Positions 1-34,973 of a stretch of DNA of 64,000 nucleotides are shown here, one piece after another. Origin of the DNA: Bacteroidia bacterium (GTDB lineage Bacteria > Bacteroidota > Bacteroidia > NS11-12g > UBA955). The notes under the pieces are model-generated. The model was not told the origin of the DNA. It made no database searches and saw only the letters and a list, made by a program, of their open reading frames with translations. Numbering within the stretch: position 1 is the first letter of the stretch; each line of letters begins with the position of its first letter. Position numbers and translations under genes: made by a program. The stretch is from assembly GCA_023653095.1 (NCBI GenBank), contig JAMNXP010000009.1:1-64000 (forward strand). The letters are read 5' to 3'.

Positions 1-210
1 AACCCCCAAAGACCAAAGACCAACCCCCAAAGACCAAAGACCAACCCCCAAAGACCAAAGACCATCTTCCAAAGACCAAAGACCAACCCCCAAAGACCAA
101 AGACCAACCCCCAAAGACCAAAGACCATCTTCCAAAGACCAAAGACCAACCCCCAAAGACCAAAGACCAACCCCCAAAGACCAAAGACCAAAGACCAATG
201 TCCAAAGACC
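1..210. repeat. 7/21-bp tandem repeat tract
   Basis: Nine tandem 21-bp units, each made of three heptamers (aaccccc or atcttcc, then aaagacc twice), followed by a degenerate tenth unit. Seven of the first nine units begin aaccccc and two (the fourth and seventh) begin atcttcc. The tract touches the left edge, so its full length is unknown. The frame used by the gene that follows is open across the whole tract but holds no start codon. There are no unique spacers, so this is not CRISPR. The heptamer TTTGGTC, its reverse complement, recurs near 28090. Confidence 0.95.
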
Positions 211-1060
211 TACAACAAAAATCTCTTATCCCTCAGCATCTGCAGGTTGTATTGTAAACGATGAATGGTGGATCATTGGCGATGACGCCCCAGAAATGCT
301 GGTTATTCATCCCAAGAGATCCGACAAAACCAAATTTGTACCGCTGCCGTTTTACGGGAAATTACACAAGGGTGAACTGCACGCACAACGACAAAAAAAG
401 AAAACCAAACACGACATTGAGGCAATAAGTTCTTACACTGACCCACAAGGAGGAATGCATGTTTTGGCTTTTGGATCAGGGTCTAAAAGTCCTCAAAGAG
501 ATAGCGGACTTTATTTCATGAATCAACAAATGCAATTGGTTGATTGGGGGCCTTTGTATGAACAACTCAGAAAGGCGTCTAAGATCAGCGAAGATGATTG
601 GAACATTGAAGGAGCTTGTCATGATGCGAATGGCAATCTGTATCTATTCAACAGAAAACCATCGGTTTTGATGGTAATTTCGGCGAAAGATTGGTTTAGA
701 TACTTAGAAATAAAAAGTGTCCCTGAAATTGAAAATATCCAGGTTAGAACTTTTGAGTTACCGGCGATTAAAGGTAAAAAATCGGGCTTTTCTGGTGCTG
801 ATTTTGATGCCACATACAAACGAATCATCTTCTGTTCATCGGTGGAGATTTCCGATGATTCCTACCGAGATGGCGAAATTCTGGGATCTTTTGTGGGCGT
901 AATCGAATGGCCGTCCCTCGAAAAAATAAAAATCACCCAAACAATTGATGGACTCAAACTGGAAAGTGTTGCGATAAATGCAAAAAATTCCAAAGAAATT
1001 TGGGGCCTAATAGACAACGATAAAGGTGGTTCGCAGTTGCTGACGTTAAAAATTGACTAA
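198..1060 (+). CDS. DUF6929-like protein, probable 1-nt frameshift near the start
   Basis: Soluble protein of unknown function. The intact downstream frame from ATG 296 gives 254 residues, but the same frame is clearly coding further upstream: from about 221 it reads ISYPSASAG..., then WWIIGDDAPEM, which matches my memory of the N-terminus of Bacteroidota DUF6929 proteins (beta-propeller-like). No start codon exists in that frame before the left edge. The only nearby ATG, at 198, is out of frame and stops at 257. Adding one A to the five-A run at 217-221 would join the two and give about 287 residues starting MSKDLQQK. I infer a one-base deletion, real or a sequencing error, in a gene whose start lies in the last heptamers of the repeat. 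The family name is from memory; no search was possible. Confidence 0.6.
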
Positions 1061-1065
1061 TTTTG
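1037..1065 (+). promoter_or_regulatory. Bacteroidota promoter for the SGNH hydrolase
   Basis: TTG at 1037-1039, 18-nt spacer, TAATTTTG at 1058-1065, matching the Bacteroidota -33/-7 consensus TTG/TAnnTTTG. It lies over the end of the preceding gene and argues that translation of the next gene starts at the ATG pair at 1074/1077, not at the TTG at 1053. Confidence 0.55.
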
Positions 1066-1073
1066 CCCTTAGA

Positions 1074-2108
1074 ATGATGAAGAAATTATTGGTTCTAGGA
1101 TTAATCATCAACGCCTGCACCTCTTTGCAAGCACAAAAAATTGAGAAGGTTTTATTTGTCGGAAACAGCTACACTGGTTTTCACAACCTCGCCAATTTGA
1201 CCCTCCAAGTGGCTAAAATACATGGCGACACCTTCGAAGCAACAGACCGGTCACCAGGTGGATTCACCTTCAAAAATCATACGCAAGCGCCTGATTTTTT
1301 CATGCAGCTGAGAGAAGGCAACTTTGATGCTGTTGTATTGCAAGAGCAAAGTCAATTACCCTCGTTCCCAATGAGTCAAGTGGAAACAGAGTGTTTTCCT
1401 TATGCAAAACAGATTTTAGACTCCATTAGAGCCATCAATCCGAAAACCAAAATTGCATTTTACATGACCTGGGGTCGACAAAACGGCGATGCCCAAAATT
1501 GTCCAAATTGGCCACCCGTTTGCACGTTTGGCGGTATGAATGGCCTTCTTAGAGAAAGATACATTTCAATGGCTCAACAAAATTCTTGCAGAGTTGCTCC
1601 CGTGGGAGTAGTGTGGAGAGATCTGAGAGATAGCACCAGCATTAATTTATACGAGCCAGACGGTAGTCATCCATCGCCTGAAGGATCATTAACTGCTGCG
1701 ATGGTAATTTATGCAACCCTGTTTGACAAGCAACTGAAAAATAACTTTTCATTGATGCCCTACAGCGCACAAACCATTGCGCAAATTGCGAATACGGCCA
1801 ATTTCATCACCCAAGACAGCGCCGCTTTATGGAATTACGAATACCAACTAAACATAGACCACATTAAACATACTTGGAAAAGCCAGGGTACTGCGCAAAA
1901 AATCACATCTATCCAAAATTTAGTGAATATTACCGCAAAACCCAATGAAATTTGGAGTATTTACACCGTGAATGGGGTGAAATTAAATGATAACATGATA
2001 GTTAATCGCGGAAACCATCTCGAAATCAATACGCAAAATTTGACGCCCAACTTATACTATTTAATTTCAAATCAAAATGGCATCAAACCCATTCTGTTCG
2101 AGAATTAA
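1074..2108 (+). CDS. Secreted SGNH-type hydrolase (DUF4886-like)
   Basis: Probably a periplasmic or secreted esterase/acetylhydrolase; the substrate cannot be told. The start MMKKLLVLGLIINAC... gives a signal peptide ending near LQAQ. The mature chain opens with KVLFVGNSYTG (block I, nucleophile Ser), followed by VVLQEQSQ and a C-terminal DGSHPSPEGS block carrying the Asp/His of the catalytic set. After about residue 290 a short beta-rich tail (WSIYTVNGVKL ... LTPNLYYLIS) resembles a degenerate T9SS sorting domain without the usual YPNP start. The upstream TTG at 1053 would put a hydrophilic stretch before the signal peptide and is rejected. The stop codon overlaps the convergent photolyase gene by 4 nt. 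Confident about the fold, not the substrate. Confidence 0.75.
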   Translation: MMKKLLVLGLIINACTSLQAQKIEKVLFVGNSYTGFHNLANLTLQVAKIHGDTFEATDRSPGGFTFKNHTQAPDFFMQLREGNFDAVVLQEQSQLPSFPMSQVETECFPYAKQILDSIRAINPKTKIAFYMTWGRQNGDAQNCPNWPPVCTFGGMNGLLRERYISMAQQNSCRVAPVGVVWRDLRDSTSINLYEPDGSHPSPEGSLTAAMVIYATLFDKQLKNNFSLMPYSAQTIAQIANTANFITQDSAALWNYEYQLNIDHIKHTWKSQGTAQKITSIQNLVNITAKPNEIWSIYTVNGVKLNDNMIVNRGNHLEINTQNLTPNLYYLISNQNGIKPILFEN

Positions 2109-3538
2109 GTGTGTATTTTCAAGATGCGCTGAGCCTCTAACCTAACCTCTTTATTGCCTTTCATTCCCCACAGTCGCTCGCGCGCTGCCTTGTGTGATGC
2201 TTTTAAATCGACAACGGGCTTAGGGTAATTTTCCGGAGGATGTTCCAATTTCCAAGGTTCAAAAATTTCAGGGGCATTCAATTCAGCCAATTCCGAAACC
2301 CACTTTTTGATGAATTTCCCTTCGGAATCGTGTTCTTCGGCTTGTTTTGTGGGATTATAAATTCTAATAGTATTGGTACCCGTAATTCCCGCCTGCATTT
2401 GAATTTGGGGAAAGTGTATGCCCGGTTCAAAGTCTAAGAATTGTTTGGATAAATGCGCTGCTGCTGCCTCCCAACTTTCGTTCAAATGATGAGTAATGAA
2501 ACTAACCAGCATGGCTCTCATTCTAAAATTCAAATACCCAGTGTAGTTTAAGGCTCTCATGCAAGCATCCACTAACGGAATACCCGTATTTCCTTCTCTC
2601 CATCGTTTGATATTTTCTTGATTTCCTTCATATTCAAGTGCTGAATACCCTCGGTTCACCGAAACAAATTCCATTTCACACTCACTTTCAAACTTTTGCA
2701 TGAAATGCTCTCTCCACCTCAATCGAGAGGCGAACTGGCTAAAGTTGCGCCTATTCTTGGCTTCTTTCGAGGCCCAATATTGCGCTTGATAAACTTGTCT
2801 TAGACTGATATTCCCCCAGGATAAATAGGGACTTATTCTTGAACAACCTGCTCTTGACTCTTCGGGCTTAGAAATGGAGCGAGCATAACTGTAAATTCTT
2901 TCATTTAAAAAACTATTTAGATATTTAAAAGCCAAAAGTGTACCCCCTTTTTGAGTGATTCCCTCAACCAAAGGCTTCTCTTTAATCTCATTTTCAATGG
3001 CCCAATCATTCCATTGGGCGTTCTCGAATCTATGTATTTTTTCTAAATCAGAATCGTGCTGTTGAGCTTCCATATAGGAATACCAATACTCGTTGAATCC
3101 CTTTCTGCTTTGCAATCCGCGCCTAATTCCCGAATACTTCATTTCTTTCCATGGGATGTTTTGAGCGTGAAACCACTCTTTCAATTGTCGATCACGTTTG
3201 TACGTAACTTCCAATCCTACTTCTTGAACACTGACTACTTCATAATTGCCTACTGCCTTTTTTAAAGCAGCAAACACATCTAGGGCCTCTGATTCCACTG
3301 CATATAAAACATGGTTCTTCAAGTATGCCATTCTTTTCATCTCTTCAATAGATTCCCATACAAATCTGTGGTGTCTCGCACTGTAATGTTCAGAATTGAA
3401 TACGGAAGGCTCAAAGATATACAACATGATTACGGGTCTACCCTGTGTGATGGCAAATTCAATCAATGGTTGATCAAACAACCTGAGATCTCTTTTAAAC
3501 CATAACACTATTGGGTGCCTAAATGTGGGGGTTTCCAT
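2105..3538 (-). CDS. Cryptochrome/photolyase family protein
   Basis: Flavoprotein of the DNA photolyase/cryptochrome superfamily; 477 residues is the usual length. The N-terminal alpha/beta antenna domain starts IVLWFKRDLRLFDQ. The C-terminal helical FAD domain contains SRISPYLSWGNISLRQV, GIPLVDACMRAL, GYLNFRMRAMLVSFI and FEPGIHFPQIQMQAG, all typical FAD/DNA-binding blocks. It would repair cyclobutane dimers with blue light or act as a photoreceptor; sequence alone does not decide. A 12-bp perfect palindrome lies 11 bp upstream of the start. Confidence 0.88.
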   Translation of the reverse strand: METPTFRHPIVLWFKRDLRLFDQPLIEFAITQGRPVIMLYIFEPSVFNSEHYSARHHRFVWESIEEMKRMAYLKNHVLYAVESEALDVFAALKKAVGNYEVVSVQEVGLEVTYKRDRQLKEWFHAQNIPWKEMKYSGIRRGLQSRKGFNEYWYSYMEAQQHDSDLEKIHRFENAQWNDWAIENEIKEKPLVEGITQKGGTLLAFKYLNSFLNERIYSYARSISKPEESRAGCSRISPYLSWGNISLRQVYQAQYWASKEAKNRRNFSQFASRLRWREHFMQKFESECEMEFVSVNRGYSALEYEGNQENIKRWREGNTGIPLVDACMRALNYTGYLNFRMRAMLVSFITHHLNESWEAAAAHLSKQFLDFEPGIHFPQIQMQAGITGTNTIRIYNPTKQAEEHDSEGKFIKKWVSELAELNAPEIFEPWKLEHPPENYPKPVVDLKASHKAARERLWGMKGNKEVRLEAQRILKIHT

Positions 3539-3548
3539 CAGACAATGT

Positions 3549-3560
3549 TAACAATTGTTA
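3549..3560. promoter_or_regulatory. 12-bp palindrome upstream of photolyase
   Basis: The perfect inverted repeat TAACAATTGTTA starts 11 nt upstream of the photolyase start codon, in the divergent gap before the beta-helix gene. A related TATTGTTAA half appears about 30 bp further on. It could be an operator for a light-response regulator, but no regulator is encoded nearby, so the role is a guess. Confidence 0.25.
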
Positions 3561-3635
3561 TAGCTATTTGGATTTTATGTTATCTATTGTTAAAAGTTCA
3601 ACAAAAAAAACAACTGAACTTTGTAGCGAGAAATT

Positions 3636-8142
<4,507 letters not shown>

Positions 8143-8190
8143 AATCTAAATAATTTTGTGGATGCACCACATCCAACTGGGTATCTGGAT

Positions 8191-8228
8191 AGGCCTTCTG
8201 CCATTGAGCAGGAGGCCTTACTTTTTTC
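8191..8228 (+). terminator. Rho-independent terminator
   Basis: 11-bp stem (8191-8201 with 8208-8218, one G-U pair), 6-nt loop, then a T-rich run at 8221-8227. Ends icd, or a small RNA started at the TAATTTTG just upstream. Confidence 0.8.
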
Positions 8229-8382
8229 AAGGGACTACATTTCCAACCTCAAATATGCGTTTTCAATACAAATTCCGACAATATATATTCGCTAATTATA
8301 TCATTTCCGACAATTTCATGAAATAAAATCCTGTTAATTGAGAATTCAGAGATAAAAGATTGATATCAATCCGCAGGACCGA

Positions 8383-8410
8383 GGCTGTCGACTGACCGCA
8401 GACGACTCAA
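8383..8410 (+). repeat. Short degenerate heptamer run
   Basis: Four consecutive 7-nt units (ggctgtc, gactgac, cgcagac, gactcaa), the same family as the larger tract at 9249-9375. Confidence 0.5.
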
Positions 8411-8498
8411 AGTCATTTTAAGGATTTACCTTAAATTTATATTTATGATTACGGAGTAGTCGTTATTTTTCAGAAAGGAATCACAATAGTTTCGATAC

Positions 8499-9242
8499 AT
8501 GAAAAAATCAATACTATTTGTGAGTTCATTTTTGCTACTTTCATTCGCAAAAACTCAAATCACCTTACATCCAACCATCGGAGGTAATCTTCACGGAATT
8601 GCAACTTATAAACCTGAAGGTTATTCGAGGTTTGATGATTATGATAAGGAATATTTTGAATCAGAAAAAGTTGCCTATAAAAAACAAAAAGGCGGATTTC
8701 AAATCGGCATATCAGCTGATATTCCGTTATCTGATAGATTTTCATTTGAACCTGGACTTAGATTTATAAAAAAAGGGTTTCTCTATGATGACAATTATTC
8801 TGATGGCGATTATTCATATCAAGAGCAAATAAGGCTCAATATTCGCTATCTCGAACTACCTCTGATGGTTAATTTCAACACAGAACTTAGCAGTGGTATA
8901 TTGACCTTCACGTTTGGCCCGAGCATCGGTATTCAAATGGGAGGTAAATTAAAATACCATTACGAAGAAACAGATCCATTTTCGGGAACATACAAGGAAA
9001 CCGAAACCATAAAGAATGGAACAGGAGACGAAGCGACCCAAGATTCATACAATTATATTTTTAAATCTGAAGATTATCTCCAACCCCAAGAAATTGGATT
9101 GTACACCGGTGTAAGATACGAAATAAATAACTTGACATTCGGATTCACCTACGGTCAAGGACTTTCACAACTTATAACTGATATTGAAAATCAAAAATCA
9201 AAAGTTCTCATGTTGAATATTGGATATAAAATTGAATTGTAA
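8499..9242 (+). CDS. Outer-membrane beta-barrel (porin-family) protein
   Basis: 247 residues with signal peptide MKKSILFVSSFLLLSFAKTQ. The mature part alternates hydrophobic and polar residues in strands (GGFQIGISADIPLSDRFSFEPGLRFIKKGF, LELPLMVNF, LTFTFGPSIGIQMGGKL, IGLYTGVRYEINNLTFGFTYGQGL), typical of the small PorT/OmpW-like barrels of Bacteroidota, and ends in the barrel signature VLMLNIGYKIEL. An 8-strand barrel is likely; function unknown. Heptamer repeats lie on both sides. Confidence 0.75.
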   Translation: MKKSILFVSSFLLLSFAKTQITLHPTIGGNLHGIATYKPEGYSRFDDYDKEYFESEKVAYKKQKGGFQIGISADIPLSDRFSFEPGLRFIKKGFLYDDNYSDGDYSYQEQIRLNIRYLELPLMVNFNTELSSGILTFTFGPSIGIQMGGKLKYHYEETDPFSGTYKETETIKNGTGDEATQDSYNYIFKSEDYLQPQEIGLYTGVRYEINNLTFGFTYGQGLSQLITDIENQKSKVLMLNIGYKIEL

Positions 9243-9248
9243 ATTAGC

Positions 9249-9375
9249 TAACGGCTGTCAGCTGACGGCTGTCGGTGTCGGCTGTCCGCTGACGGCTGTC
9301 GGCTGTCGGTGTCGGCTGTCCGCTGACGACTGACCGCTGATCACCGATCACCGATCACCGATCACCGAAAACTGA
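9249..9375 (+). repeat. Heptanucleotide repeat tract in the GH20 leader
   Basis: About 17 units of 7 nt (ggctgtc, ggctgac, cgctgac, then caccgat four times), with a longer inner block (ggctgtc-ggtgtc-ggctgtc-cgctgac) occurring twice. It fills the gap between the barrel gene and the hexosaminidase and ends about 23 nt before the GTG start. Confidence 0.9.
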
Positions 9376-9397
9376 AATCCATTCCCTAAATTGCGGC

Positions 9398-10972
9398 GTG
9401 CAGTCATATTTAAAATCCCTAGCCCTACTTACGGCTTGGTCAATCACATTAATAGCAAAAGGCCAGATCATTCCCCAACCCCAATCCATTGAGATACTCG
9501 AAGGGAAAAATGTAAGTTTCAATAACTTTAAGTTGAACGACAAATCAGTAGCTGAACATCCGTGGCTGGGTAGAGATCCCTTTTTCTTAATTCATGAGAC
9601 CTGTGAAAAGGTTCGAAATGTGGAAGTAGTGCTGATTATAAGTCCCCCGAAAGAAAAAAATGCAAAAGGAACAGATGAATATTCGTTGGTGATTGACAAA
9701 AAAATCACCATCAGTGCAACTACAGAAAATGGACTTAAATTGGGCGTAGCCAGCCTAAAGCAATGGTTCTACTTACATTACAATTATGAAGGTAGCCTTC
9801 CGAAAGTGAAAATTATTGATGCACCAAAGTTTAACTATAGAGGCGTTCATCTGGATGTGAGTCGGCATTTTTTTCCGGTGCAATTCATCAAAACTTACTT
9901 AGATATTTTGGCTTTGTACAAAATCAATCAGTTTCACTGGCACTTGACCGACGACCAAGGTTGGCGCATTCAAATCAAGAAATATCCCAAGCTTCATGCC
10001 GTTGGCTCTTGGAGAAATGAAACCATGGTGGCGAAGAATTTTCAGCCCTATGTGGGCGACAGTACACCACATGCTGGATATTACGGCCAAGATGAAATCA
10101 AAGAAATTGTTCAATATGCCGCTGATCGAGGCATCAATGTGATTCCCGAAATCGAAATGCCAGGACATGCGAGAGCCGCTTTGGCCGCTTATCCGCAGTA
10201 TTCTTGTAGACAGGTCCAGCAAAATGTTCCAGGCGTTTGGGGAGTTTTTGAGGACGTTTATTGCGTAAATGATAGTACGTTTAACTTTCTATTTGATGTA
10301 CTGGATGAAGTAATAGCTCTATTCCCATCCAAAATGATTCACATTGGAGGAGATGAGGTGCCTAAGTCTCGTTGGAAGGAATGCCCCAAATGTCAGCATG
10401 CAAAAACATCCCATAATCTGAAAGACGAACACGAACTTCAAAGCTATTTTGTGGGGAAAATCGACTCGTTTCTTACCTCTAGAGGAAGAACTTTGGTGGG
10501 CTGGGATGAAATTTTAGAAGGCGGACTATCACCCAACGCGGTGGTCATGAGTTGGAGAGGAACCGAAGGTGGAATTGCGGCTGCCAAACAAAAGCATCAA
10601 GCCATCATGACTCCCGGAAGCCATTGCTATTTTGATCATTATCAAGACACTTCCAAGACAGAACCCTTGGCTATTGGTGGATTTACATCGTTGGAAAAGG
10701 TGTATAATTATCAACCCATTCCGTCAACTTTAGACAGCGCAGAGCAAACATATATCTTGGGCGCTCAGGCCAATCTTTGGACCGAATACATGCCCACTGA
10801 AAAACAAGTCCTTTACATGCTCCTACCCCGTTTGTGCGCTCTTTCTGAAGTACTTTGGACAGACTATAAGGATTTTATCTCTTTTGAAAACAGAATAGAT
10901 CAACACGAGTATTTTATCTTCGAACGAAATTTCTGGAATTACAAAAAGTATGAACCGAAGAACGCTCATTAA
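9398..10972 (+). CDS. GH20 beta-N-acetylhexosaminidase
   Basis: Removes terminal N-acetylglucosamine/galactosamine from glycans or chitin oligomers, probably in the periplasm (signal peptide MQSYLKSLALLTAWSITLIAKGQ). A GH20b-like N-domain covers about residues 25-140. The catalytic barrel starts FNYRGVHLDVSRHFFPV and carries HWHLTDDQGWRIQIKKYP and HIGGDEVPKSRW, whose Asp-Glu pair is the catalytic pair. Later come GWDEILEGG and ANLWTEYMPT. The start is GTG at 9398, because no ATG precedes the signal peptide. The last 23 nt overlap the glycosylasparaginase gene. First gene of a three-gene operon; a heptamer tract sits directly upstream. Confidence 0.93.
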   Translation: MQSYLKSLALLTAWSITLIAKGQIIPQPQSIEILEGKNVSFNNFKLNDKSVAEHPWLGRDPFFLIHETCEKVRNVEVVLIISPPKEKNAKGTDEYSLVIDKKITISATTENGLKLGVASLKQWFYLHYNYEGSLPKVKIIDAPKFNYRGVHLDVSRHFFPVQFIKTYLDILALYKINQFHWHLTDDQGWRIQIKKYPKLHAVGSWRNETMVAKNFQPYVGDSTPHAGYYGQDEIKEIVQYAADRGINVIPEIEMPGHARAALAAYPQYSCRQVQQNVPGVWGVFEDVYCVNDSTFNFLFDVLDEVIALFPSKMIHIGGDEVPKSRWKECPKCQHAKTSHNLKDEHELQSYFVGKIDSFLTSRGRTLVGWDEILEGGLSPNAVVMSWRGTEGGIAAAKQKHQAIMTPGSHCYFDHYQDTSKTEPLAIGGFTSLEKVYNYQPIPSTLDSAEQTYILGAQANLWTEYMPTEKQVLYMLLPRLCALSEVLWTDYKDFISFENRIDQHEYFIFERNFWNYKKYEPKNAH

Positions 10973-25146: not shown

Positions 25147-25161
25147 CCATATCACATAATT

Positions 25162-25177
25162 TGTGACAAAGGTTACT
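25162..25177. promoter_or_regulatory. Crp/Fnr-type site upstream of rhodanese
   Basis: TGTGA-caaagg-TTACT, 50 nt before the rhodanese ATG. Same layout as the sites at 30067 and 31932, all beside sulfur genes. Confidence 0.5.
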
Positions 25178-25226
25178 TCGGAATCAAAAAAATTGAAGGA
25201 ACTTTGCAGCATTAAAAATCAGAATT

Positions 25227-25505: not shown

Positions 25506-25529
25506 CCCACAAATTATACTCCATAAAAA

Positions 25530-25554
25530 AAGGCCGCTAAAAGCGGCCTTTTTT
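25530..25554. terminator. Bidirectional terminator
   Basis: Stem AAGGCCGCT/AGCGGCCTT with a 3-nt loop, A-run before and T-run after, so it works for both the rhodanese and the convergent YeeE operon. Confidence 0.92.
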
Positions 25555-25571
25555 ATTTATAACATTGGATT

Positions 25572-26063: not shown

Positions 26064-26074
26064 AACATTTCAAA

Positions 26075-26638: not shown

Positions 26639-26649
26639 AATCAACGAAT

Positions 26650-28065
26650 TTATGCTTTTTGAAGTTTAGATTGACAAACAAAATCCGTTTTAGCAACGCC
26701 CGCTTCAGCGATGGCCTTAAATCCGCCTTCCACTTCTTTGAAGTTATGGATTCCTTTGGACTTCAATACCGATGCGGCAATCATACTGCGGTAACCACCT
26801 GCGCAATGTACATAAAATTCACCTTCATGCGAAGTCAAGTCCACAAACCACTCTCCAATAAAATCCAAAGGTTTGTTGTACGCCTCATCTACGTGTTCAG
26901 CACGGTATTCAGACTCCTTACGTACATCTAAAATAAACGACTCACCGATGGTGATCTCAGACTTGAACTGTTCAGCAGTGATGCGATTCACAGAATCAAC
27001 TTCCTTACCCGCAGCTTTCCAAGCATCCATTCCACCTTTCAAATATCCATAAACCACATCAAATCCAACGCGGCTCAAACGAATCAAGGTTTCTTCTTCC
27101 TTTCCTTCGTCGGTAACCAATAACAATGGCTGCTTTACATCCACCACCATTGCACCAACCCAAGGTGCGAATTGGCCGTCTAGTCCAATATTGATTGAAC
27201 GTGGAACAAATGCATCTTTAAATACAGCTGCACTTCTAGTATCCAAAATCAAAGCTCCAGTAGTTTCAGCTGCTGTTTCGAATTCTTCTGGTGTCAACCC
27301 TTTCAAACCTTGGTCCATCACTGAATCAAACGACTCATAACCCTTCTTATTCATGGCCACGTTCATGGGGAAATAAGCAGGTGGAGGCAATAAACCATCG
27401 GTTACCGCTTCAATAAACGCTTCTTTGCTAGGCTGATTCAAAGCGTAGTTCATTTCCTTTTGGTGACCCAATGTGTCCATGGTTTCTTTCATCATGTTCT
27501 TACCACATGCTGAACCCGCACCGTGTGCAGGATAAACCATCACCTCATTAGGCAAGGGCATAATCTTGTTCATCAAGCTTTCATATAGCATACCAGCCAA
27601 CTGCTCTTGAGTCATATCGGCTGCTTTTTGTGCTAGATCAGGACGTCCCACATCACCCAAGAAAAGCGTATCTCCACTAAACAGGCTCGTTGGAACACCA
27701 TTTTCTAACAACAAGAAACAAGTACTCTCCATCGTATGTCCAGGTGTGTGCAACACACGAATCACTGCATCGCCCAAAAGAAACTCTTGTCCGTCTTCGG
27801 CAATTATACACTCAAACTCTGGGTTTGCTTTTGGACCATAAATGATGGGAGCACCAGACTTCTTACTCAAGTCTAAATGTCCACTCACAAAATCAGCGTG
27901 GAAATGCGTTTCAAAAATGTACTTAATCTTAGCACCGTCTTTTTCAGCACGATCAAGATAAGGTTGTACCTCACGCAGCGGATCAATGATCGCAACTTCG
28001 CCGTTGTTCTCAAGGTAATAAGCTCCCTGAGCAAGGCATCCTGTGTAAATCTGTTCTACTTTCAT
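26650..28065 (-). CDS. MBL-fold hydrolase with two rhodanese domains
   Basis: 471 residues. The N-terminal metallo-beta-lactamase fold (1-240) has THFHADFVSGH, HTPGHTMES and YPAHGAG, as in persulfide dioxygenase (ETHE1-like) and the staphylococcal CstB class, which oxidise per/polysulfides to sulfite or thiosulfate. Rhodanese 1 (~260-355, LILDTRSAAVFKDAF) has no Cys in its loop (LLLVTDEGKEEE). Rhodanese 2 (~370-460) has the active Cys in FYVHCAGGYRSM. Cytoplasmic. Its start lies 20 nt from a heptamer repeat tract that separates it from tsdA, so its transcription or leader may be affected by that tract. Confidence 0.92.
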   Translation of the reverse strand: MKVEQIYTGCLAQGAYYLENNGEVAIIDPLREVQPYLDRAEKDGAKIKYIFETHFHADFVSGHLDLSKKSGAPIIYGPKANPEFECIIAEDGQEFLLGDAVIRVLHTPGHTMESTCFLLLENGVPTSLFSGDTLFLGDVGRPDLAQKAADMTQEQLAGMLYESLMNKIMPLPNEVMVYPAHGAGSACGKNMMKETMDTLGHQKEMNYALNQPSKEAFIEAVTDGLLPPPAYFPMNVAMNKKGYESFDSVMDQGLKGLTPEEFETAAETTGALILDTRSAAVFKDAFVPRSINIGLDGQFAPWVGAMVVDVKQPLLLVTDEGKEEETLIRLSRVGFDVVYGYLKGGMDAWKAAGKEVDSVNRITAEQFKSEITIGESFILDVRKESEYRAEHVDEAYNKPLDFIGEWFVDLTSHEGEFYVHCAGGYRSMIAASVLKSKGIHNFKEVEGGFKAIAEAGVAKTDFVCQSKLQKA

Positions 28066-28084
28066 ATTTATATTTTTATAGTTT

Positions 28085-28213
28085 TTAGTCTTTGGTCCTT
28101 GGTCCTTGGCTAGCAGCCATCGGCGTTCAGCTGTTAACTAGAGGCTGTCGGCTGTCGGCTGACGGCTGTCGGCTGACGGCTGACGGCTGACGGCTGATCG
28201 CTGTTTGCTGATC
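28085..28213 (-). repeat. Heptanucleotide repeat tract inside the sulfur operon
   Basis: About 18 consecutive 7-nt units: TTTGGTC-like units at 28090-28108, degenerate ones to 28140, then near-perfect ggctgtc/ggctgac units from 28143 to about 28198. It fills the gap between the tsdA-like stop (28215) and the MBL start (28065). Shares its unit families with the tracts at 1 and 9249. Confidence 0.9.
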
Positions 28214-28214
28214 A

Positions 28215-29234
28215 TCAATCTTTCAATGCCTCGTAGTAAGCCTTGATCTCGGCGTAAGGACCAAATTTGTGCTGCTTCTCCGGAAATTTGTCAGCGTATG
28301 GTCCAAACGGGTGATCAAAGGGTTTCTTTGAAATATCTGGCCAGTCTTTCGACAAGTCCATTTTGGGGCGTTCCTGCGTATTTACATAGGCAGCAACATC
28401 CCAAGCTTCTTCGTCTGTTAATTGCGGATTGTTGTGCGTGGCACCCAACGGCATGTTTGCTTTTACATAGCCCGCAAAGTTTGACATCCTGAAAAGTCCT
28501 GCGCCTTCATTGTAACTCAATTTACCCCACAACGGCGGATAAGTATAAGCATTGCCCTTATCGTTCAAAACACCTTGTCCGTCAGCTTGATGGCAAACCG
28601 CGCACTTAGCATCATAAACCAATTTTCCACCTACAGGATCAATTGGTCGTTTCAAAAAGGCCACTTTCATAATGCCTGAACCTGGGGCTTTTTCCTTTTT
28701 GGGGACATTTTTACCCAACCAATTGATGTATTTCATCATGGCTTGCATCTCACGAGAAGTACTATCAGGTGCCTTTCCGTTTAATGAACGCTCGAAGCAA
28801 TCAGATACGCGTTTGTAAATATTTTCTATTTGACCACTTCTTCCACGAAACTTTGGATAAGTACTGGCCACTGAGCCGTAGTTGTTTCCCCATGGTTGGG
28901 TACCTGCGTTGAGGTGACAATTTTGGCAATTTAAACCATTGGTAAAATGTGCAACTGAACCGTTCGGACCGAAATATTCAGCGGTATGAGCCACCAATTC
29001 ACGTCCGTATTTGATCAATTCTCCGTCTTCACCAGCGGGTAATTCCGAATCAGACGGTGCAGCCCATAATTTTTCCTGGGGAATAGAATCATTGACAGAA
29101 ACTGACCCATTGTTATCTGAAAACCATTGATTTGAGGCGAGATCCCATCCCAAGAAAAGAACCACCACAATAAACAGACCACCTACCAATTTGTGGTCGT
29201 TCTTGTTGAAAAACTTTGTGATCCAGGCTTCCAT
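28215..29234 (-). CDS. tsdA: TsdA-like thiosulfate dehydrogenase, dihaem cytochrome c
   Basis: About 339 residues from ATG 29234. An N-terminal membrane anchor (HKLVGGLFIVVVLFLGWDLAS) fixes it to the inner membrane, facing the periplasm. Two haem sites: CQNCH near residue 105 and CAVCH near 215. Family blocks NCHLNAGTQPWGNNYGS, YPKFRGRSGQIENIYKRVSDCFERSLNG and MQAMMKYINWLGKNVP match TsdA; the Cys in SDCFERS may be the unusual haem ligand of that family (from memory). It would oxidise two thiosulfates to tetrathionate or do the reverse. An upstream start at 29300 lies inside tauE and gives no sensible leader. 5 nt after tauE. Confidence 0.87.
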   Translation of the reverse strand: MEAWITKFFNKNDHKLVGGLFIVVVLFLGWDLASNQWFSDNNGSVSVNDSIPQEKLWAAPSDSELPAGEDGELIKYGRELVAHTAEYFGPNGSVAHFTNGLNCQNCHLNAGTQPWGNNYGSVASTYPKFRGRSGQIENIYKRVSDCFERSLNGKAPDSTSREMQAMMKYINWLGKNVPKKEKAPGSGIMKVAFLKRPIDPVGGKLVYDAKCAVCHQADGQGVLNDKGNAYTYPPLWGKLSYNEGAGLFRMSNFAGYVKANMPLGATHNNPQLTDEEAWDVAAYVNTQERPKMDLSKDWPDISKKPFDHPFGPYADKFPEKQHKFGPYAEIKAYYEALKD

Positions 29235-29239
29235 AGTGA

Positions 29240-30031
29240 TTATTTCATTGACATCAAGGAGTTCACAATGATGTAAATTCCCATGATTAAAACAAACCAA
29301 CCAAATGCAGGTTTTAATTTATCTCCGCTGATCTTTTTACTCAATGCGGCTCCGCTGAAAATACCTACAACGGCAATCGCGCTGAAAGTCAACATGAAAA
29401 TCCAGTCAATTTCGGCACCGCGTCCCAAATCACCTAAAAAACCTAACAATGATTTTGACGCAATGATGATCAAAGAAGTACCTACGGCTTGTTTCATGGG
29501 CAATTTGGCCAGTAATACCAATGCGGGAATGATTAAAAATCCACCGCCAGCACCAACTAAACCAGTTACCATTCCAACTATCAGTCCTTCAGCAAGGATC
29601 ATAGGATAATTGAAACTAACTTCGGTTTCATCTGCCGCCTTTGGTTTACCCTTGCGAATCATGCTGTAAGATGCCGCAACCATGATGATGGCAAAAAAGA
29701 TTAAGATGGCTAAATCTTTGCTCAGTCCCCCGAAAACAGGATTCGGGATGGCGGGCACCACAAAATGACGGGTCAAATACACACTGATGATGGAAGGAAT
29801 TCCAAAAACAATGGCCGTGCGCCAATGTATATTGCCCATTCTCATGTGCGAAAACGACCCAAAAAGGCTGGTTAATCCCACAATAAACAAAGAATAAGCC
29901 GTTGAAAGCTCGGCGTTTACGCCAAATAAATATACCAAAATGGGCACCGTTAAAATAGAACCTCCCCCGCCAATAAGTCCGAGTGAAATTCCCATCAAAA
30001 CTGCTCCTAGGTAACCAAATATTTCTAACAT
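29240..30031 (-). CDS. TauE/SafE family sulfite/sulfur-anion exporter
   Basis: 263 residues from ATG 30031, about eight membrane helices in two homologous halves, with the family's glycine-rich entries GISLGLIGGGGSILTVPILVYLFG and GLIVGMVTGLVGAGGGFLIIPALVL. Members export sulfite, sulfoacetate or import/export sulfur anions. Here the likely job is removal of sulfite made by the MBL-rhodanese or SoxB-like protein (inference). TTG at 30040 is an alternative start adding three residues. Packed tightly against tsdA; a Crp/Fnr-type site lies 36 nt upstream. Confidence 0.87.
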   Translation of the reverse strand: MLEIFGYLGAVLMGISLGLIGGGGSILTVPILVYLFGVNAELSTAYSLFIVGLTSLFGSFSHMRMGNIHWRTAIVFGIPSIISVYLTRHFVVPAIPNPVFGGLSKDLAILIFFAIIMVAASYSMIRKGKPKAADETEVSFNYPMILAEGLIVGMVTGLVGAGGGFLIIPALVLLAKLPMKQAVGTSLIIIASKSLLGFLGDLGRGAEIDWIFMLTFSAIAVVGIFSGAALSKKISGDKLKPAFGWFVLIMGIYIIVNSLMSMK

Positions 30032-30066
30032 AGCTAGCAAATTAATAGTCTAATTTAAATAATTTG

Positions 30067-30082
30067 TGTGATAAAAGTTACT
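30067..30082. promoter_or_regulatory. Crp/Fnr-type site between soxB-like and tauE
   Basis: TGTGA-taaaag-TTACT, starting 36 nt upstream of the tauE ATG and ending 4 nt after the soxB-like stop. Nearly the same as the site at 25162, including the flanking TAATTTGTG. Confidence 0.5.
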
Positions 30083-30085
30083 GTC

Positions 30086-31840
30086 TTATCTGAATGTGTA
30101 CTCGTAACCCTCTAGTTGACTCAACAAATTGATGGGCTGATCTGTGCATTCCACACGACCTTCCACTTTGGGTTCAATAGGCGAATGCGACGTCAAATAT
30201 TCGCGAATGATTTCGTGAAGAGAAATTCCCTCATCGTGGGGACTATCAACGTCTAACATTCGACATATGGCGTCTTCGGGGTCGCCATCGCGTTCGCAAG
30301 CCACAATTTTGTACATTTTCTTTTTATCAATGTCTTCGCCGCCAATTTTGATCCAGTTCACGCGCTTGCCCATCTCATTTTTCGAAGTAAAATTCACCTT
30401 CATTCCCGAAAATCTTACTACCCAACCGCCAAATCGCTTGGCAGGGTCTTTCGCGAACACATTTTCCAATTCTTTCTCCATCCACTTCCAAATTTTCTCA
30501 CCGCTGACCATTCCAGAACGTGCTTGAGAATCTACCGGCAGCATGCTCCACAAGAAATCGTTGGTAATTTCCGACGGTTTTTCGGGGGACGCTACCAGCG
30601 GTGGACAAAATCTAAATCCGTTAGACAGAGCCACATCGGGCTTGAATTTATCAAAAACAGCATCGGTGATGAAGTTATCCATGGGATTCTCCAACACATA
30701 ATATCTCACCAAGGTAGATTTGGTTTTCCCAATGACTTTTCCAAGTTCTGGTTTGTAGGGTTCAAAGGTCTTTTCTACTAGCTGCTGCATTTCAGCATCG
30801 GGCTTATATTTGGATGGATCTACATCCATCAATTCATAAAAATGTTCTTTGATCTTGCCATCTTCAACCACAATATCCAACTTACCCAAGAACGAACCAA
30901 ATGCACCTGGCTCAGTCACCTTTGTATACTTGGTTTCTATGGGTTGACGAACTCTTTCATGGGTATCTGCACCCAAGATATAATCTACACCTTCTACAAA
31001 TGGCTTGTTTCCAAGGTCAATCTGCTGAGTAAGTCCCATATGGGTCACTAAAAAGACCATGGCACAATTCTCATACTCTCTCAAATACTTTACGTATCTA
31101 GCGGTGTTCAACTCAGGATCGGTGAATTCAATTCCGTTTGAATACGCCGGTGATTGGCGTTTCGGGGTCAACGGATCGTTGTAGCCTATGAATCCCAACT
31201 TCAATCCCGCCACCGTTTTAGTCCAATACGGAGGGAAAATCAATTCTTTACCAATGGCTGGATTGTCTGAATGAAACATATTGGCGCACACTTTAGCGGC
31301 CTGATATCCACCCAAATCCTTGATCATATTCTCTTTACCATAAACCACTTCCCAGTTTCCGGGAAGCATTAAGTCGTATCCTATATTATTGATGATGGGA
31401 ATCAACGCTCTACCTTCGGTGAGAGCCGCTACCCCACTTCCTTGGAAACAATCTCCGCCATCAACAACGATGGTATTTGCAGGATTCTCATTTCTGATGG
31501 TGTTGATCATGGTTTTCAAGGTGGCCATACCGCCTCTGCGCTTGAAAACCGCCTTTCCATTCTCCCAGAAAAACTCATCGTGTTCCAACAATTGACCGTG
31601 AATGTCTGCGGTTTGCAAAATGGTAAATCGTTGAGCTTTTCCGCTTTTTAGGGCGTTCATTTTATCAACCGATTTTGCATCGGAACTACAAGAGCTTAAT
31701 GAACCACCTGTGATTGATCCAAAGGCCAAGCCCAAACCCGTCACGGTTCCTGCTTTCTTTAAAAAATCACGGCGGTTGCTGCCTTTGTCGCCGTCGTTGC
31801 AACCACAGTTACAACCAGAAGTATGGTAGATTTTTGTCAT
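30086..31840 (-). CDS. soxB: SoxB-like thiosulfohydrolase / 5'-nucleotidase superfamily protein
   Basis: About 584 residues from ATG 31840. A Cys-rich start (SGCNCGCNDG) precedes a Tat motif (NRRDFLKKAG) and a hydrophobic stretch ending GSLSSC, a possible lipobox, so a folded, perhaps lipid-anchored periplasmic enzyme. The metallophosphatase core has ADIHGQ, DGGDCFQGSG, PGNWEVVYG, VTHMGLTQQ and GADTHERV. The Trp-Glu in GNWE (His-Glu in nucleotidases) and ENVFAKDP...RFGGWVVRFSGMKV resemble SoxB, the di-Mn enzyme that frees sulfate from sulfur-loaded SoxYZ. No soxYZ is seen in the window. It could instead act on another sulfur carrier or on nucleotides. Confidence 0.75.
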   Translation of the reverse strand: MTKIYHTSGCNCGCNDGDKGSNRRDFLKKAGTVTGLGLAFGSITGGSLSSCSSDAKSVDKMNALKSGKAQRFTILQTADIHGQLLEHDEFFWENGKAVFKRRGGMATLKTMINTIRNENPANTIVVDGGDCFQGSGVAALTEGRALIPIINNIGYDLMLPGNWEVVYGKENMIKDLGGYQAAKVCANMFHSDNPAIGKELIFPPYWTKTVAGLKLGFIGYNDPLTPKRQSPAYSNGIEFTDPELNTARYVKYLREYENCAMVFLVTHMGLTQQIDLGNKPFVEGVDYILGADTHERVRQPIETKYTKVTEPGAFGSFLGKLDIVVEDGKIKEHFYELMDVDPSKYKPDAEMQQLVEKTFEPYKPELGKVIGKTKSTLVRYYVLENPMDNFITDAVFDKFKPDVALSNGFRFCPPLVASPEKPSEITNDFLWSMLPVDSQARSGMVSGEKIWKWMEKELENVFAKDPAKRFGGWVVRFSGMKVNFTSKNEMGKRVNWIKIGGEDIDKKKMYKIVACERDGDPEDAICRMLDVDSPHDEGISLHEIIREYLTSHSPIEPKVEGRVECTDQPINLLSQLEGYEYTFR

Positions 31841-31931
31841 ATATTCATTTTTAAATTTCAATTTTAAAGACTCATTTCTTGAATCTGAAAAATCACGAAA
31901 TTCAAAGATGACTAAAAGAAATTGAAAACTT

Positions 31932-31947
31932 TGTGATAATTATCACA
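31932..31947. promoter_or_regulatory. Perfect palindromic Crp/Fnr-type site upstream of soxB-like gene
   Basis: TGTGA-taatta-TCACA, a 16-nt perfect palindrome about 90 nt upstream of the soxB-like start and touching the tatD stop. Strongest of three such sites in the sulfur cluster. Confidence 0.6.
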
Positions 31948-32710
31948 CACCAAAAAGCTGCACTGCATTTCTGGACGTCACCTCTGCCACTTGCAACAGA
32001 CTTTCTCCCGTAATATCAGCCACTTTCTCAGCCACATATCTAGTGTACGAGGGTTCATTGCGCTTACCTCTATAAGGCACAGGCGCCAAATAAGGACTGT
32101 CAGTTTCCAGTACCAACTTCTCTAGGCCTAGCTCACTCACCACTTGAGCTATCCCCGCATTTTTGAAGGTCACTACTCCGCCAATTCCCAAATAAAAACC
32201 CAACTTGATGATTTCATCGGCCAACTCCTTACTCTCAGAAAAGCAATGAAACACCCCTTGTACCTTTCCTTTATAAGGTTTTAGTACTTTTATCACTTCC
32301 TGGGTTGCGTTCCGAGTATGTAAAGACATGGCCAGGCCTTTTTCAATGGCCCATTCTATTTGGATATTCAAAGATTCCTCTTGCCAAGCTTGCGTAGATT
32401 TATCCCAATACAAATCCATGCCCGTTTCCCCAACTCCCACATATTTCCGCTTATCGAACCATGCATGCATGATTTCTAAGTCTTTCTTAAAATCTTCTTT
32501 TACATAGCACGGATGAAGTCCCATCATCGAAAAACAATTTTCAGGATGCTGATCTTCCAAGTCATGCATCACCCCTATACTGTCCATATCAATGTTGGGA
32601 AGTAAAATTCTATTCACCCCATTTTCGATGCTTTTCGCTACCGCGGATGCTCTATCTTCATTGAACTCTTCACTGTACAAATGACAATGAGTGTCTACCA
32701 ATTTCACCAC
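31943..32710 (-). CDS. tatD: TatD family metal-dependent hydrolase
   Basis: 255-residue TIM-barrel nuclease/hydrolase. Metal ligands: DTHCHLYSEEF (HxH), VGVGETGMDLYW (Glu), SLHTRNA and VFHCFSES (His), LETDSPYLAPVPYRGKRNEPS (Asp). Acts on DNA or D-aminoacyl compounds in the family. Overlaps the enoyl-CoA hydratase gene by 7 nt, so it belongs to the comEC-ech-tatD unit rather than the sulfur cluster. Confidence 0.93.
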   Translation of the reverse strand: MVKLVDTHCHLYSEEFNEDRASAVAKSIENGVNRILLPNIDMDSIGVMHDLEDQHPENCFSMMGLHPCYVKEDFKKDLEIMHAWFDKRKYVGVGETGMDLYWDKSTQAWQEESLNIQIEWAIEKGLAMSLHTRNATQEVIKVLKPYKGKVQGVFHCFSESKELADEIIKLGFYLGIGGVVTFKNAGIAQVVSELGLEKLVLETDSPYLAPVPYRGKRNEPSYTRYVAEKVADITGESLLQVAEVTSRNAVQLFGV

Positions 32711-33474
32711 GAAATTTTCTCCTTATTTAAAAATGCCGATACCCCTTTTTGACAATCATCGGTTTTACGAGCCAAAGCATTTTGCTCGGCTGCATAACTT
32801 AATGATTCATTCCAATCTGTGGGCATATTTCTCATCATATTTTTGATTCTCGAAGTCGATTCAGAGCTCACCGTCTTCAACAACTGTGCAGCAAAATCAT
32901 GCACTTTTGCACCCACATTTTCCTCTACTGCATACACCAATCCATCTTTTAGGGCTTTATCTGCCGAGAAAATTTGAGCCGTCAACAACCATTCGTTCAT
33001 CTGGTTTTGGTTTAACTTTTCTTTCAAATACACCATAACTAAGGCCGGAATAAAACCAATCCGAGCCTCCGTATATCCAAAAGTAGAATCTGGGGTTGCA
33101 AAACAAAAATCTGCCAAAAATGCGAGTCCACATCCTCCGGCAAGAGCCGGGCCCTCCACCTGAGATACCGTGATCTTTGGCGAATGGTAAATGAGTTCAA
33201 ACAAGTTCTTCAATCGGGTGGAATCTTCAATATTTTCTTGATGCGTGAACTGACTCAGAGAATTCAAGTAAGACAAATCTGCACCCGCACAAAAAGCACC
33301 TTCCTTCGACTTGAGGACAATCAAACGCACGGAATTGTCTTCATTCAACTCACTGAATGCGGCAGTCAATTCCATGACTAAATCGGGATTCAAGGCATTC
33401 CTTTTTTCAGGTCTGTTCATAATGACCTCCGCGATTGGGCCACTACGTTCCACTATTACCCATTGATTGCTCAT
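32704..33474 (-). CDS. Enoyl-CoA hydratase/isomerase family protein (methylglutaconyl-CoA hydratase type)
   Basis: 256 residues from ATG 33474 (the upstream start at 33486 overlaps comEC). Crotonase fold: MNRPEKRNALNPDL, GAFCAGADLSYL (oxyanion hole), GPALAGGCGLAFLADFCFA and FGYTEARIGFIPALV with a catalytic Glu. The pattern, especially SKEGAFCAGADLSYL and GFIPALV, recalls the leucine-degradation methylglutaconyl-CoA hydratase of Bacteroidota, but substrate is not proven. 2 nt after comEC. Confidence 0.88.
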   Translation of the reverse strand: MSNQWVIVERSGPIAEVIMNRPEKRNALNPDLVMELTAAFSELNEDNSVRLIVLKSKEGAFCAGADLSYLNSLSQFTHQENIEDSTRLKNLFELIYHSPKITVSQVEGPALAGGCGLAFLADFCFATPDSTFGYTEARIGFIPALVMVYLKEKLNQNQMNEWLLTAQIFSADKALKDGLVYAVEENVGAKVHDFAAQLLKTVSSESTSRIKNMMRNMPTDWNESLSYAAEQNALARKTDDCQKGVSAFLNKEKISW

Positions 33475-33476
33475 AA

Positions 33477-34973
33477 TTAACTGCAAATATACAATGCAAT
33501 GCTGTACTCAACGCTCAACAGAAAGAGAGCAAGTAGGCAAAGATGTTTCCAAAAAGCTATTTTCTCTTCGCGATAAAACGTCCAAAAAACAACCACTAAA
33601 AGAAGCAACAAAAATTCCGTCCATCCCCATTGAGGACTGTAAAGATTGAAACTGGGAAGGTGCGAAAACCGAAGCATCAACGCATCCATCAAATCAATAA
33701 ATGCATTAACGCAGCAGGCAAAATACTGTAGTAAAAAGTCACTAAATCCCAAGATAAAAAAGATGACATAACCGTAGATTAGCCAATTAAAAAAAGGCAT
33801 GAGCAAGAGATTCCCTACCAAAAACCACAACGACAACTGCTCAAACTCCTTGAATATAACAGGAATAGTGGTCAGGGTGCAGATGATTGACACCACCACC
33901 GTATTGCAAAACCACTGTACCAAGGAATGAGATTCCTCAAACCGCCTCAAATAATCGGGCACCAAGAAGACTATGCCCCACATGGCCATGAGTGAAAGTT
34001 GAAATCCAAGATCAAAAAGCACCAGTGGATCCCCCAAAAGGTAAATGAACAATACCGAAAAATACACATCTGCGCCTCTCACTCTTCGAGAAAAGACTGA
34101 TTTTGCCAACACCATCAACGTCAGCGATATTGCCGCTCTAACTACAGGCGGAGACATGGGTGTCAAGTAAGTATAAACCCACACCAAGGGTAAAAGGAGC
34201 CAGCGATACTTGGCGACTTTTCGGTTGCGCTTTTCAAAAAAAGTAAAAGGCCAACTCAACAAATTAAAAACCAAAGCCAAATGCATTCCGGAAACAGAAA
34301 TCACATGAGCCAAACCCAATTTTTGAAAGGCCAATTTGTCTGATTTCTCGAGCTCTGAACGCTCCCCCCAAATCAAAGCTAAGTACCAAGCATGGGCCTT
34401 AGGTTTTAAATATTTCTTACTAAGGCCAAAAATCCTGCTCAAAATTTGGAGCTTGAGAGAGTTTAGAGGGGAGAGTGAAGAGTTGAGAGTGTAGGGTGGA
34501 GAGTGGAGAGTGTAAAGGGGAGAGTTGAGAGTTGAGTGGGGAGAGTTTAGAGTTGAGAGGTATTTCTGGGGATGAATTAAAAAAGTCTGATTTGAGCTGA
34601 AGCATTCGTCATATTTTACAGCAAGATCCCCCTCGCATTTCACCCATTTATGATCTTCAAAAATCACCCATTTTACCTCAACCATTTTCGGATTCCCGAT
34701 GGCTTGAACCATCAAGGCACGAGCGTTTGCCAGTTTTAAATAGAACAACTGCTCACGTTGATTTTTCAAAAGTAACAGTCCAAATCCAACAGAAAAAAAT
34801 CCCAAGAAAATAGCTACAATCCTACATTTGACCAACCAAAGCACCACCACCGCGGGTGGCAACAACCAAAAGAAAGTTGTCAATGCGGGTTGAATTACTC
34901 GTGCTGCAACAATGCCCAAAATGAGCATGAGCGCGGGAACGGCTAAAGGATATTTTAAATCGAACCTCAACAT
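33477..34973 (-). CDS. comEC: ComEC/Rec2 family competence protein carrying an in-frame heptamer repeat
   Basis: Inner-membrane channel for DNA uptake in natural transformation. 498 residues: N-terminal helices (YPLAVPALMLILGIVAARVI, TTFFWLLPPAVVVLWLV), a DUF4131-like soluble part, then the competence domain beginning GLAHVISVSGMHLALVFNLLSWPF with many helices. The C-terminal metallo-beta-lactamase nuclease domain of longer homologues is missing. Residues ~138-172 are five 7-residue repeats of the form TLNSPLS, encoded by 15 DNA heptamers; they sit between the soluble part and KLQILSRIFGLSKKYL and look foreign to the fold. Loss or gain of units not divisible by three would break the frame. 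Confidence 0.88.
   Translation of the reverse strand: MLRFDLKYPLAVPALMLILGIVAARVIQPALTTFFWLLPPAVVVLWLVKCRIVAIFLGFFSVGFGLLLLKNQREQLFYLKLANARALMVQAIGNPKMVEVKWVIFEDHKWVKCEGDLAVKYDECFSSNQTFLIHPQKYLSTLNSPHSTLNSPLYTLHSPPYTLNSSLSPLNSLKLQILSRIFGLSKKYLKPKAHAWYLALIWGERSELEKSDKLAFQKLGLAHVISVSGMHLALVFNLLSWPFTFFEKRNRKVAKYRWLLLPLVWVYTYLTPMSPPVVRAAISLTLMVLAKSVFSRRVRGADVYFSVLFIYLLGDPLVLFDLGFQLSLMAMWGIVFLVPDYLRRFEESHSLVQWFCNTVVVSIICTLTTIPVIFKEFEQLSLWFLVGNLLLMPFFNWLIYGYVIFFILGFSDFLLQYFACCVNAFIDLMDALMLRFSHLPSFNLYSPQWGWTEFLLLLLVVVFWTFYREEKIAFWKHLCLLALFLLSVEYSIALYICS
34457..34561 (-). repeat. 15 heptamers inside comEC
   Basis: Fifteen 7-nt units (plus strand gagagtt, gagagtg, tagaggg, aagagtt and near variants), 105 nt, an exact multiple of 21, so the comEC frame is kept. 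On the minus strand they read five repeats of TLNSPxS. Confidence 0.95.

What the first reader, a model, noticed from the sequence alone, without database searches (positions are those of the whole stretch)
1..34561. Heptanucleotide tandem repeats of different sequence but one period at five loci
Tracts at 1-210, 8383-8410, 9249-9375, 28085-28213 and 34457-34561 all have a 7-nt period, with different units (aaagacc, ggctgtc/ggctgac, caccgat, gagagtt). Three lie just upstream of, or at, gene starts and one lies inside a gene. The shared period with unlike sequences points to one generating process (slippage or a templated mechanism) rather than copies of one element. Cyanobacterial STRR repeats are heptameric as well; I know of no description for this group, but cannot check.
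Basis: partly seen in the sequence, partly recalled or inferred. Interest (0 to 1): 0.75.

Follow-up and report, generated by a model that had tools for sequence, protein, structure and literature searches.

The report
Seven-base tandem repeats replaced between species
This bacterium's genome is dotted with short repeat tracts whose unit is nearly always seven bases long; its closest sampled relative has tracts at some of the same places but spelled differently, which points to a repeat-making process that is known in outline and still unexplained.

Summary
The tracts are real and period 7 is nearly exclusive: 58 segments in 415,670 b of this genome, two at period 6, none at 2-5 or 8-11, none in a shuffle. 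Four of the five listed tracts hold; 8383-8410 is weak.

The units are not unrelated. 309 of 696 pairs of arrays from different stretches share a unit, against 1 of 780 pairs between this genome and its nearest relative, G066. Unit blocks mostly keep one order. G066 has heptad arrays at several of the same gene junctions; ten other congeners sampled show no period-7 segment in 332,383 b.

Two-unit arrays are polar: G/T-rich heptads first, A/C-rich heptads of another sequence second (40 of 62, opposite in 3; four genomes). Between two cyanobacterial congeners, four of six alignable arrays differ by whole-heptad indels, other changes besides.

Heptamer excess in bacteria is published, as are convergent G-rich heptamer pairs in Xanthomonas. 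Species-wise replacement of units and polarity between unlike units were not found in my literature searches. Most likely: gain and loss of whole heptads plus copying between loci.

The parts
1..210 (.). Heptad array, AAAGACC with interspersed AACCCCC and ATCTTCC (21-base higher-order unit), at the edge of contig C12, before gene 296-1060
   Evidence: a 119-base exact match to the end of contig C5
8383..8410 (.). Weak tract of about four degenerate heptads before gene 8499-9242
   Evidence: read; not reported or 21
9249..9375 (.). Heptad array: CGGCTGT/CCGCTGA block, then TCACCGA (GATCACC) block, between genes 8499-9242 and 9398-10972
28075..28109 (.). Heptad block TTGGTCC, first part of the array in the junction 28066-28214
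28143..28213 (.). Heptad block GGCTGAC/GGCTGTC, second part of the same array, ending next to the stop codon of gene 28215-29300
   Evidence: array with other units at the same junction in G066, no repeat in G062 and G059
34457..34559 (.). Heptad array GAGAGTG/GAGAGTT inside the open frame of the ComEC-like gene 33477-34973 (minus strand)
   Evidence: no array at that place in G066

Best explanation
These are heptanucleotide tandem arrays of a known general class, in an extreme form. Shown: period 7 is nearly exclusive; arrays here lie mostly outside called genes and often next to stop codons; a few unit classes recur at many loci, mostly in one block order; the nearest relative has arrays at several of the same junctions with other units; in a pair of cyanobacterial congeners four of six alignable arrays carry indels of whole heptads. 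Inferred: arrays gain and lose heptads by strand slippage or unequal exchange, and segments are copied between loci by recombination or conversion, so that a species' set of units is homogenised and replaced over time. Gene ends and in-frame linkers are where growth is tolerated. Why exactly seven bases, and why G/T-rich heptads come first and A/C-rich ones second, stays open; the polarity suggests something symmetric about the array centre, which plain slippage does not predict.
For: Period spectrum. Arrays sharing a unit: 309 of 696 pairs within G000, 44 of 180 within G066, 1 of 780 between them. Block order: A before C 14:0, B before C 14:0, D before C 7:0, A before B 18:4. Irregular shared exact stretches up to 48 b between different stretches. 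Orthologous junction with other units in G066 and no repeat in G062 and G059. Barrel gene 8499-9242 inverted in G066 with an array at its 3' side in both, which fits recombination between arrays. Whole-heptad indels: 7 and 42 b, 7 b, 7 b, and 21 b in four arrays of a cyanobacterial pair.
Against: Exchange between loci was never seen directly; shared exact stretches are short and could reflect convergent growth of the same units. No strain pair of this species was available, so growth by heptads in G000 itself is inferred. In the cyanobacterial pair other changes also occur: a 13-b gap, a 95-b gap, gaps of 3-5 b and substitutions. In the order test the strand was chosen by majority of blocks, and B against D (4:2) and A against the 17-mer (2:1) are not fixed. 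Polarity is not explained by this account.
Confidence: 0.6

Rival explanations
1. Independent local slippage at each locus with no exchange between loci (the simplest form of the first reader's view).
For: Near-exclusive period 7, degenerate units, whole-heptad indels in the cyanobacterial pair, arrays inside genes at places unique to one species.
Against: Units shared among loci of one genome (309 of 696 pairs) but hardly between sister species (1 of 780); block order.
Confidence: 0.15
2. Copies of one composite mobile or dispersed element (heptad blocks plus the 17-base GCTTCGC repeat), since decayed and expanded.
For: Block order and shared composite stretches; the 17-base repeat lies next to or within heptad arrays at several loci.
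Against: Longest irregular match between different stretches is 48 b, leaving out the two contig edges; no Y1 transposase in G000 or G066; arrays inside genes. Terminal repeats and target duplications were not searched for.
Confidence: 0.1
3. End extension: both 3' ends of a break are lengthened with G/T-rich heptads, then joined, giving two facing arms.
For: Polarity with unlike units: 40 of 62 two-unit arrays G/T-first and A/C-second, 3 opposite; GT skew 18:3, 16:3 and 6:1 in stretches taken at fixed positions.
Against: No RVT_1 hit in G066; polarity by GC skew is weaker (17:3, 11:7, 5:2; G066 8:6) and not significant in unselected arrays of other phyla (16:10); spacers persist while arms change. 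No enzyme is known for it.
Confidence: 0.08
4. Selected 3'-end function: terminator or mRNA-end hairpin, or a binding site for a protein with 7-base pitch.
For: Nearness to stop codons; excess between convergent and deficit between divergent genes in G000 (counts; Fisher p 0.0014 and 0.0005); folding z against dinucleotide shuffles -3.8 (21 arrays) and -2.2 (7 arrays); central hairpins in Sphaerospermopsis (mean z -1.7, 11 arrays).
Against: Left and right units pair no better than permuted pairs; no central hairpin signal in G000 or G066; sense-strand C>G is 14:5 in G000, 0:6 in G066, 33:24 elsewhere; the convergent excess and divergent deficit are not seen in the other-phyla loci (13 convergent and 14 divergent of 86 intergenic arrays against 53 and 55 of 282 junctions).
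Confidence: 0.07

Closest known systems
Heptanucleotide long simple sequence repeats (Mrazek 2007; seen only as summarised in PMC4679880 and PMC4692102)
   Same: Tandem 7-base units, commonest class among longer units
   Different: Here nearly the only period; units shared across the genome, ordered and polar
GGGAATC arrays of Xanthomonas and GGGGA(C/T)T arrays of Nostoc (Rehm 2015, PMC4692102, passages and two sections read)
   Same: Dispersed, mostly intergenic heptamers, nearer to the 5' neighbouring ORF; in Xanthomonas 70 and 75 convergent pairs of G-rich sites
   Different: One unit family per organism there, the same unit on both sides; here unlike units on the two sides and several families
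TAACTGA repeats of Beggiatoaceae, cyanobacteria and five Bacteroidetes (MacGregor 2015, PMC4679880, abstract, passages and two sections read)
   Same: Intergenic heptamer arrays; repeat-free junctions in close relatives
   Different: One heptamer, mostly upstream of start codons in Beggiatoaceae
STRR repeats of cyanobacteria (recalled; papers not seen)
   Same: Heptameric, dispersed
   Different: Not compared in detail
REP/BIME elements (recalled)
   Same: Dispersed between genes, favouring gene 3' ends
   Different: Palindromic units with a Y1 transposase; none found in G000 or G066
Omega/parS heptads of plasmid pSM19035 (recalled; PMC9499535 seen only in a search listing)
   Same: Unspaced 7-base units; GATCACC shares ATCAC with the recalled WATCACW
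   Different: One consensus on a plasmid; here many unlike units over a chromosome

Membership tests
Heptanucleotide simple sequence repeats | Tandem units of 7 bases over-represented against other periods | tested here: met
   58 segments at period 7 against 2 at 6 and 0 at 8-11
Heptanucleotide simple sequence repeats | Unit number changes by whole heptads between close relatives | tested here: inconclusive
   Met in four of six alignable arrays of a cyanobacterial pair; no strain pair of this species available
TAACTGA repeats | Unit TAACTGA | tested here: not met
   TAACTGA is not among the 32 tandem unit classes of G000 arrays (the 30 commonest are printed); whole-genome search for it was not run on G000
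Xanthomonas-type convergent G-rich pairs | G-rich heptads facing each other in close proximity | tested here: met
   By G/T content: 13 of 18 two-unit arrays in G000, 1 opposite
Xanthomonas-type convergent G-rich pairs | Same unit on both sides | tested here: not met
   X and Y pair no better than permuted pairs
REP/BIME | Associated Y1 (RAYT) transposase | tested here: not met
   PF01797 in 1 of 14 congeners, G063 only; G000 is about 75% complete
Mobile element (MITE type) | Terminal inverted repeats and target duplications | not tested
   No search made
Omega/parS heptads | Cognate ribbon-helix-helix protein | not tested
   No search made

The most novel reading that the evidence does not exclude
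A dedicated, centre-symmetric process in several bacterial phyla builds G/T-rich heptads onto both 3' ends of breaks or stalled sites (a bacterial analogue of telomere-type end extension); the unit it writes is set genome-wide and changes between species, so heptad arrays record past breaks.
Probability: 0.08. Interest if true: 0.9.

Novelty: new variant of a known kind. Interest (0 to 1): 0.55.

Why it matters
That bacterial repeats often prefer seven bases was reported in 2007 (cited second-hand here) and has only a conjectural explanation. This case adds constraints for any mechanism: near-exclusive period 7, a unit set shared across one genome yet replaced in its nearest sampled relative at some of the same junctions, a mostly fixed block order, and facing G/T-rich arms of unlike sequence. 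G000 and G066 against congeners without period-7 arrays in the samples give a comparison in which a responsible gene or loss could be sought. If units are exchanged between loci, this would be satellite-like concerted evolution in a bacterial genome.

Tried and rejected
Reverse-transcriptase templating: PF00078 found in 1 of 14 congeners, G000, not in G066; a very divergent enzyme could be missed. REP/RAYT: Y1 transposase only in G063. Loss of mismatch repair: MutS family in 14 of 14. Hairpin as the reason for two arms: arrays fold better than dinucleotide shuffles, but left and right units pair no better than permuted pairs, and central hairpins show only in Sphaerospermopsis. Against letter-shuffled right units the pairing is higher in G000, G066 and G070, not for Watson-Crick pairs in G071. 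Rho-type sense-strand bias: present in G000, reversed in G066. Assembly artefact: rejected as a general account. Searches gave no description of this arrangement; Mrazek 2007 is not held.

Flawed steps and how they were handled. One search compared windows that overlapped, so its longest matches (176 and 135 b) are one sequence met twice; one search repeats it without flanks and its numbers are used. In one search, rows of loci matched on the minus strand were printed in the wrong orientation and not used; the rows used are G066, G060, G059, G067, G065, G058. In one search the rows of G062 and G063 took a wrong frame; only the G000-G066 pair was used. Searches use different drop-off settings and amounts of sequence (58 and 56 segments). 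Gene calls are longest-ORF calls. Tract 1-210 counts as inside a gene only because the frame is open to the contig edge. The Fisher tests use junction counts from simple gene calls and are approximate. Samples of G058 and G061 are only 5.1 and 3.5 kb; congeners G057 and G068 were not sampled.
Full report
Observation. The window is contig C12:1-64000 of a 2.04 Mb assembly in 14 contigs, about 75% complete. Repeat finding confirms period 7 at 1-210 (21-base higher-order unit), 9252-9368, 28088-28109 with 28143-28197, and 34457-34559. The tract at 8383-8410 is in neither scan and is weak. The genes beside the 28.1-kb junction encode a cytochrome c and a metallo-beta-lactamase/rhodanese protein; 34457-34559 lies in a ComEC-like gene.

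Is period 7 special? I took 18 further stretches at fixed positions (two of the 20 asked for did not exist) and scored self-matches at each period. In 415,670 b there were 58 segments at period 7, 2 at 6, 0 at 2-5 and 8-11, 2 at 12, 1 each at 15 and 16, 5 at 17, 2 at 22; 58 and 41 at the harmonics 14 and 21; and none at period 7 in one Markov shuffle. With more of the genome (469,875 b) the counts are 56 at 7, 2 at 6, 1 at 8; at a lower threshold 73 at 7, 5 at 6, 7 at 8, 3 at 9.

Units. The 44 merged arrays show degenerate heptads in blocks. In 36 arrays with a tandem unit, AAAGACC occurs in 18 and ACCGATC in 16. With all G000 stretches, 309 of 696 pairs of arrays from different stretches share a unit class. 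On the strand set by the majority of blocks, A (TTTGGTC), B (GCTGAC), D (AGAGCTG/AGAGTTT) and C (ACCGATC) stand in order: A before C 14:0, B before C 14:0, D before C 7:0, A before B 18:4. B before D is only 4:2, and the 17-base GCTTCGC repeat is before B 6:1 but after A only 2:1. Irregular exact stretches of 18 b or more are shared by 53 of 666 array pairs in G000 and 8 of 231 in G066; between different stretches the longest is 48 b in G000, apart from the contig-edge pair.

Relatives. AAAGACC x3 occurs in 2 of 70 genomes of the family: this one (112 hits) and G066 (7). GATCACC x3 occurs in 1 of 108 genomes of the order: this one (121 hits; none in G066). G066 is the closest of the 13 congeners by protein identity in three searches and is syntenic with much of the window. 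It has 31 period-7 segments in 393,225 b, with 1 at period 3 and 3 at 24 besides harmonics; ten other congeners have none at 7 in 332,383 b (one at 14, two at 6). Sixteen stretches of other family genomes gave none at 7 in 280,686 b, with four at 8. Pairs of arrays sharing a unit: 44 of 180 within G066, 1 of 780 between G000 and G066.

Same place, other words. The junction 28066-28214 holds TTGGTCC and GGCTGAC heptads here, GTATCGG and ACCAATT heptads in G066 (192 b), and 24 b and 9 b with no array in G062 and G059; in G060 the gap is 681 b, without array. Arrays also stand near the start of the orthologue of gene 296-1060 in G066. The barrel gene 8499-9242 is inverted in G066 relative to its neighbours and has an array at its 3' side in both. 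The ComEC array has no counterpart in G066, and an array in an open frame of G066 (C5:113686-113830) has none here. The contig edge at base 1 is itself an array: the end of contig C5 shares a 119-base exact match with it, and the nearest conserved genes of C5 and C12 lie within about 2 kb of each other in G066.

Placement. Of 37 arrays in G000, 19 lie between tandem genes, 11 between convergent, 1 between divergent, 5 in open frames, 1 at an edge; 23 of 41 stop-codon distances are within -21 to +4. With more sequence and a 40-base cut-off, convergent junctions are over- and divergent ones under-represented (Fisher p 0.0014 and 0.0005). The loci from other phyla show no such bias (13 convergent, 14 divergent of 86 intergenic arrays; 53 and 55 of 282 junctions).

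Polarity. In arrays with two clear units the first is G/T-rich and the second A/C-rich in 13 of 18 (G000), 11 of 17 (G066), 12 of 16 (Sphaerospermopsis kisseleviana NIES-73) and 4 of 11 (cyanobacterium ESFC-1), the opposite in 1, 2, 0 and 0; in all 40 of 62 against 3, the other 19 being neither (binomial p 3e-9 for 40:3). By GT skew in stretches taken at fixed positions: 18:3 and 16:3 in the cyanobacteria, 6:1 in new G066 stretches; by GC skew weaker, 17:3, 11:7, 5:2, and 8:6 for G066. The two sides pair no better than permuted pairs. A planctomycete and Dyella sampled in the same way (100 kb each) had no arrays.

How arrays change. S. kisseleviana and a congener (93-96% identical pieces) were compared over one 20-kb region. 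Of six arrays that could be aligned, four carry whole-heptad indels (7 and 42 b; 7 b; 7 b; 21 b). Other changes: a 13-b gap in the first, a 95-b gap in one array, gaps of 3-5 b with substitutions in another; small gaps at the ends of the compared stretches are ignored. A seventh site is partly masked. Spacers between the arms are largely kept.

Interpretation. Gain and loss of whole heptads is shown in the cyanobacterial pair and inferred here. Local slippage alone does not give genome-wide agreement of units with their replacement in the sister species; copying between loci is the simplest addition, though never seen directly. The facing G/T-rich arms suggest a process symmetric about the centre; end extension at breaks is the boldest reading, and its RT version lacks an enzyme hit in G066. 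A selected 3'-end function is possible but tests split.

Prior work. MacGregor 2015 (PMC4679880): abstract, passages, two sections. Rehm 2015 (PMC4692102): passages and two sections. PMC6749651 and PMC4060949: passages. Mrazek 2007 was not seen; STRR and REP/BIME are recalled. Rehm already reports intergenic placement near the 5' neighbouring ORF and 70 and 75 convergent pairs for one unit in Xanthomonas, few in Nostoc. I found no account of polarity between unlike units or species-wise replacement of units in searches, which cover open-licence papers only.

Noticed in passing
L014:8193-8269, L014:11928-11969, L021:10823-10848, L023:6120-6144, L025:2691-2831: A dispersed 17-base repeat around GCTTCGC (ACGCTTCGCTAGGACTC-like) lies 4 to 40 b from heptad arrays in G000.
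   Followed up: partly
8499-9242: An outer-membrane barrel gene is inverted relative to its neighbours between this genome and G066, with heptad tracts beside it.
   Followed up: partly
1-210: Contigs C5 and C12 break inside what looks like one array: 119-base match and neighbouring genes in G066.
   Followed up: yes
L110 (G000:C11:326-886): The only reverse transcriptase family hit (PF00078) among 14 congeners.
   Followed up: no
35491-35535: A coding 12-base repeat (TTCTTCAACCGG) in the gene whose G066 counterpart region carries a heptad array.
   Followed up: no
L247:6049-6159: In Sphaerospermopsis an array of CTGACTC heptads is 95 b longer than in the congener and is split by unique sequence.
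   Followed up: no
L235, L236, L237: Three Y1 transposase hits in congener G063 only.
   Followed up: no
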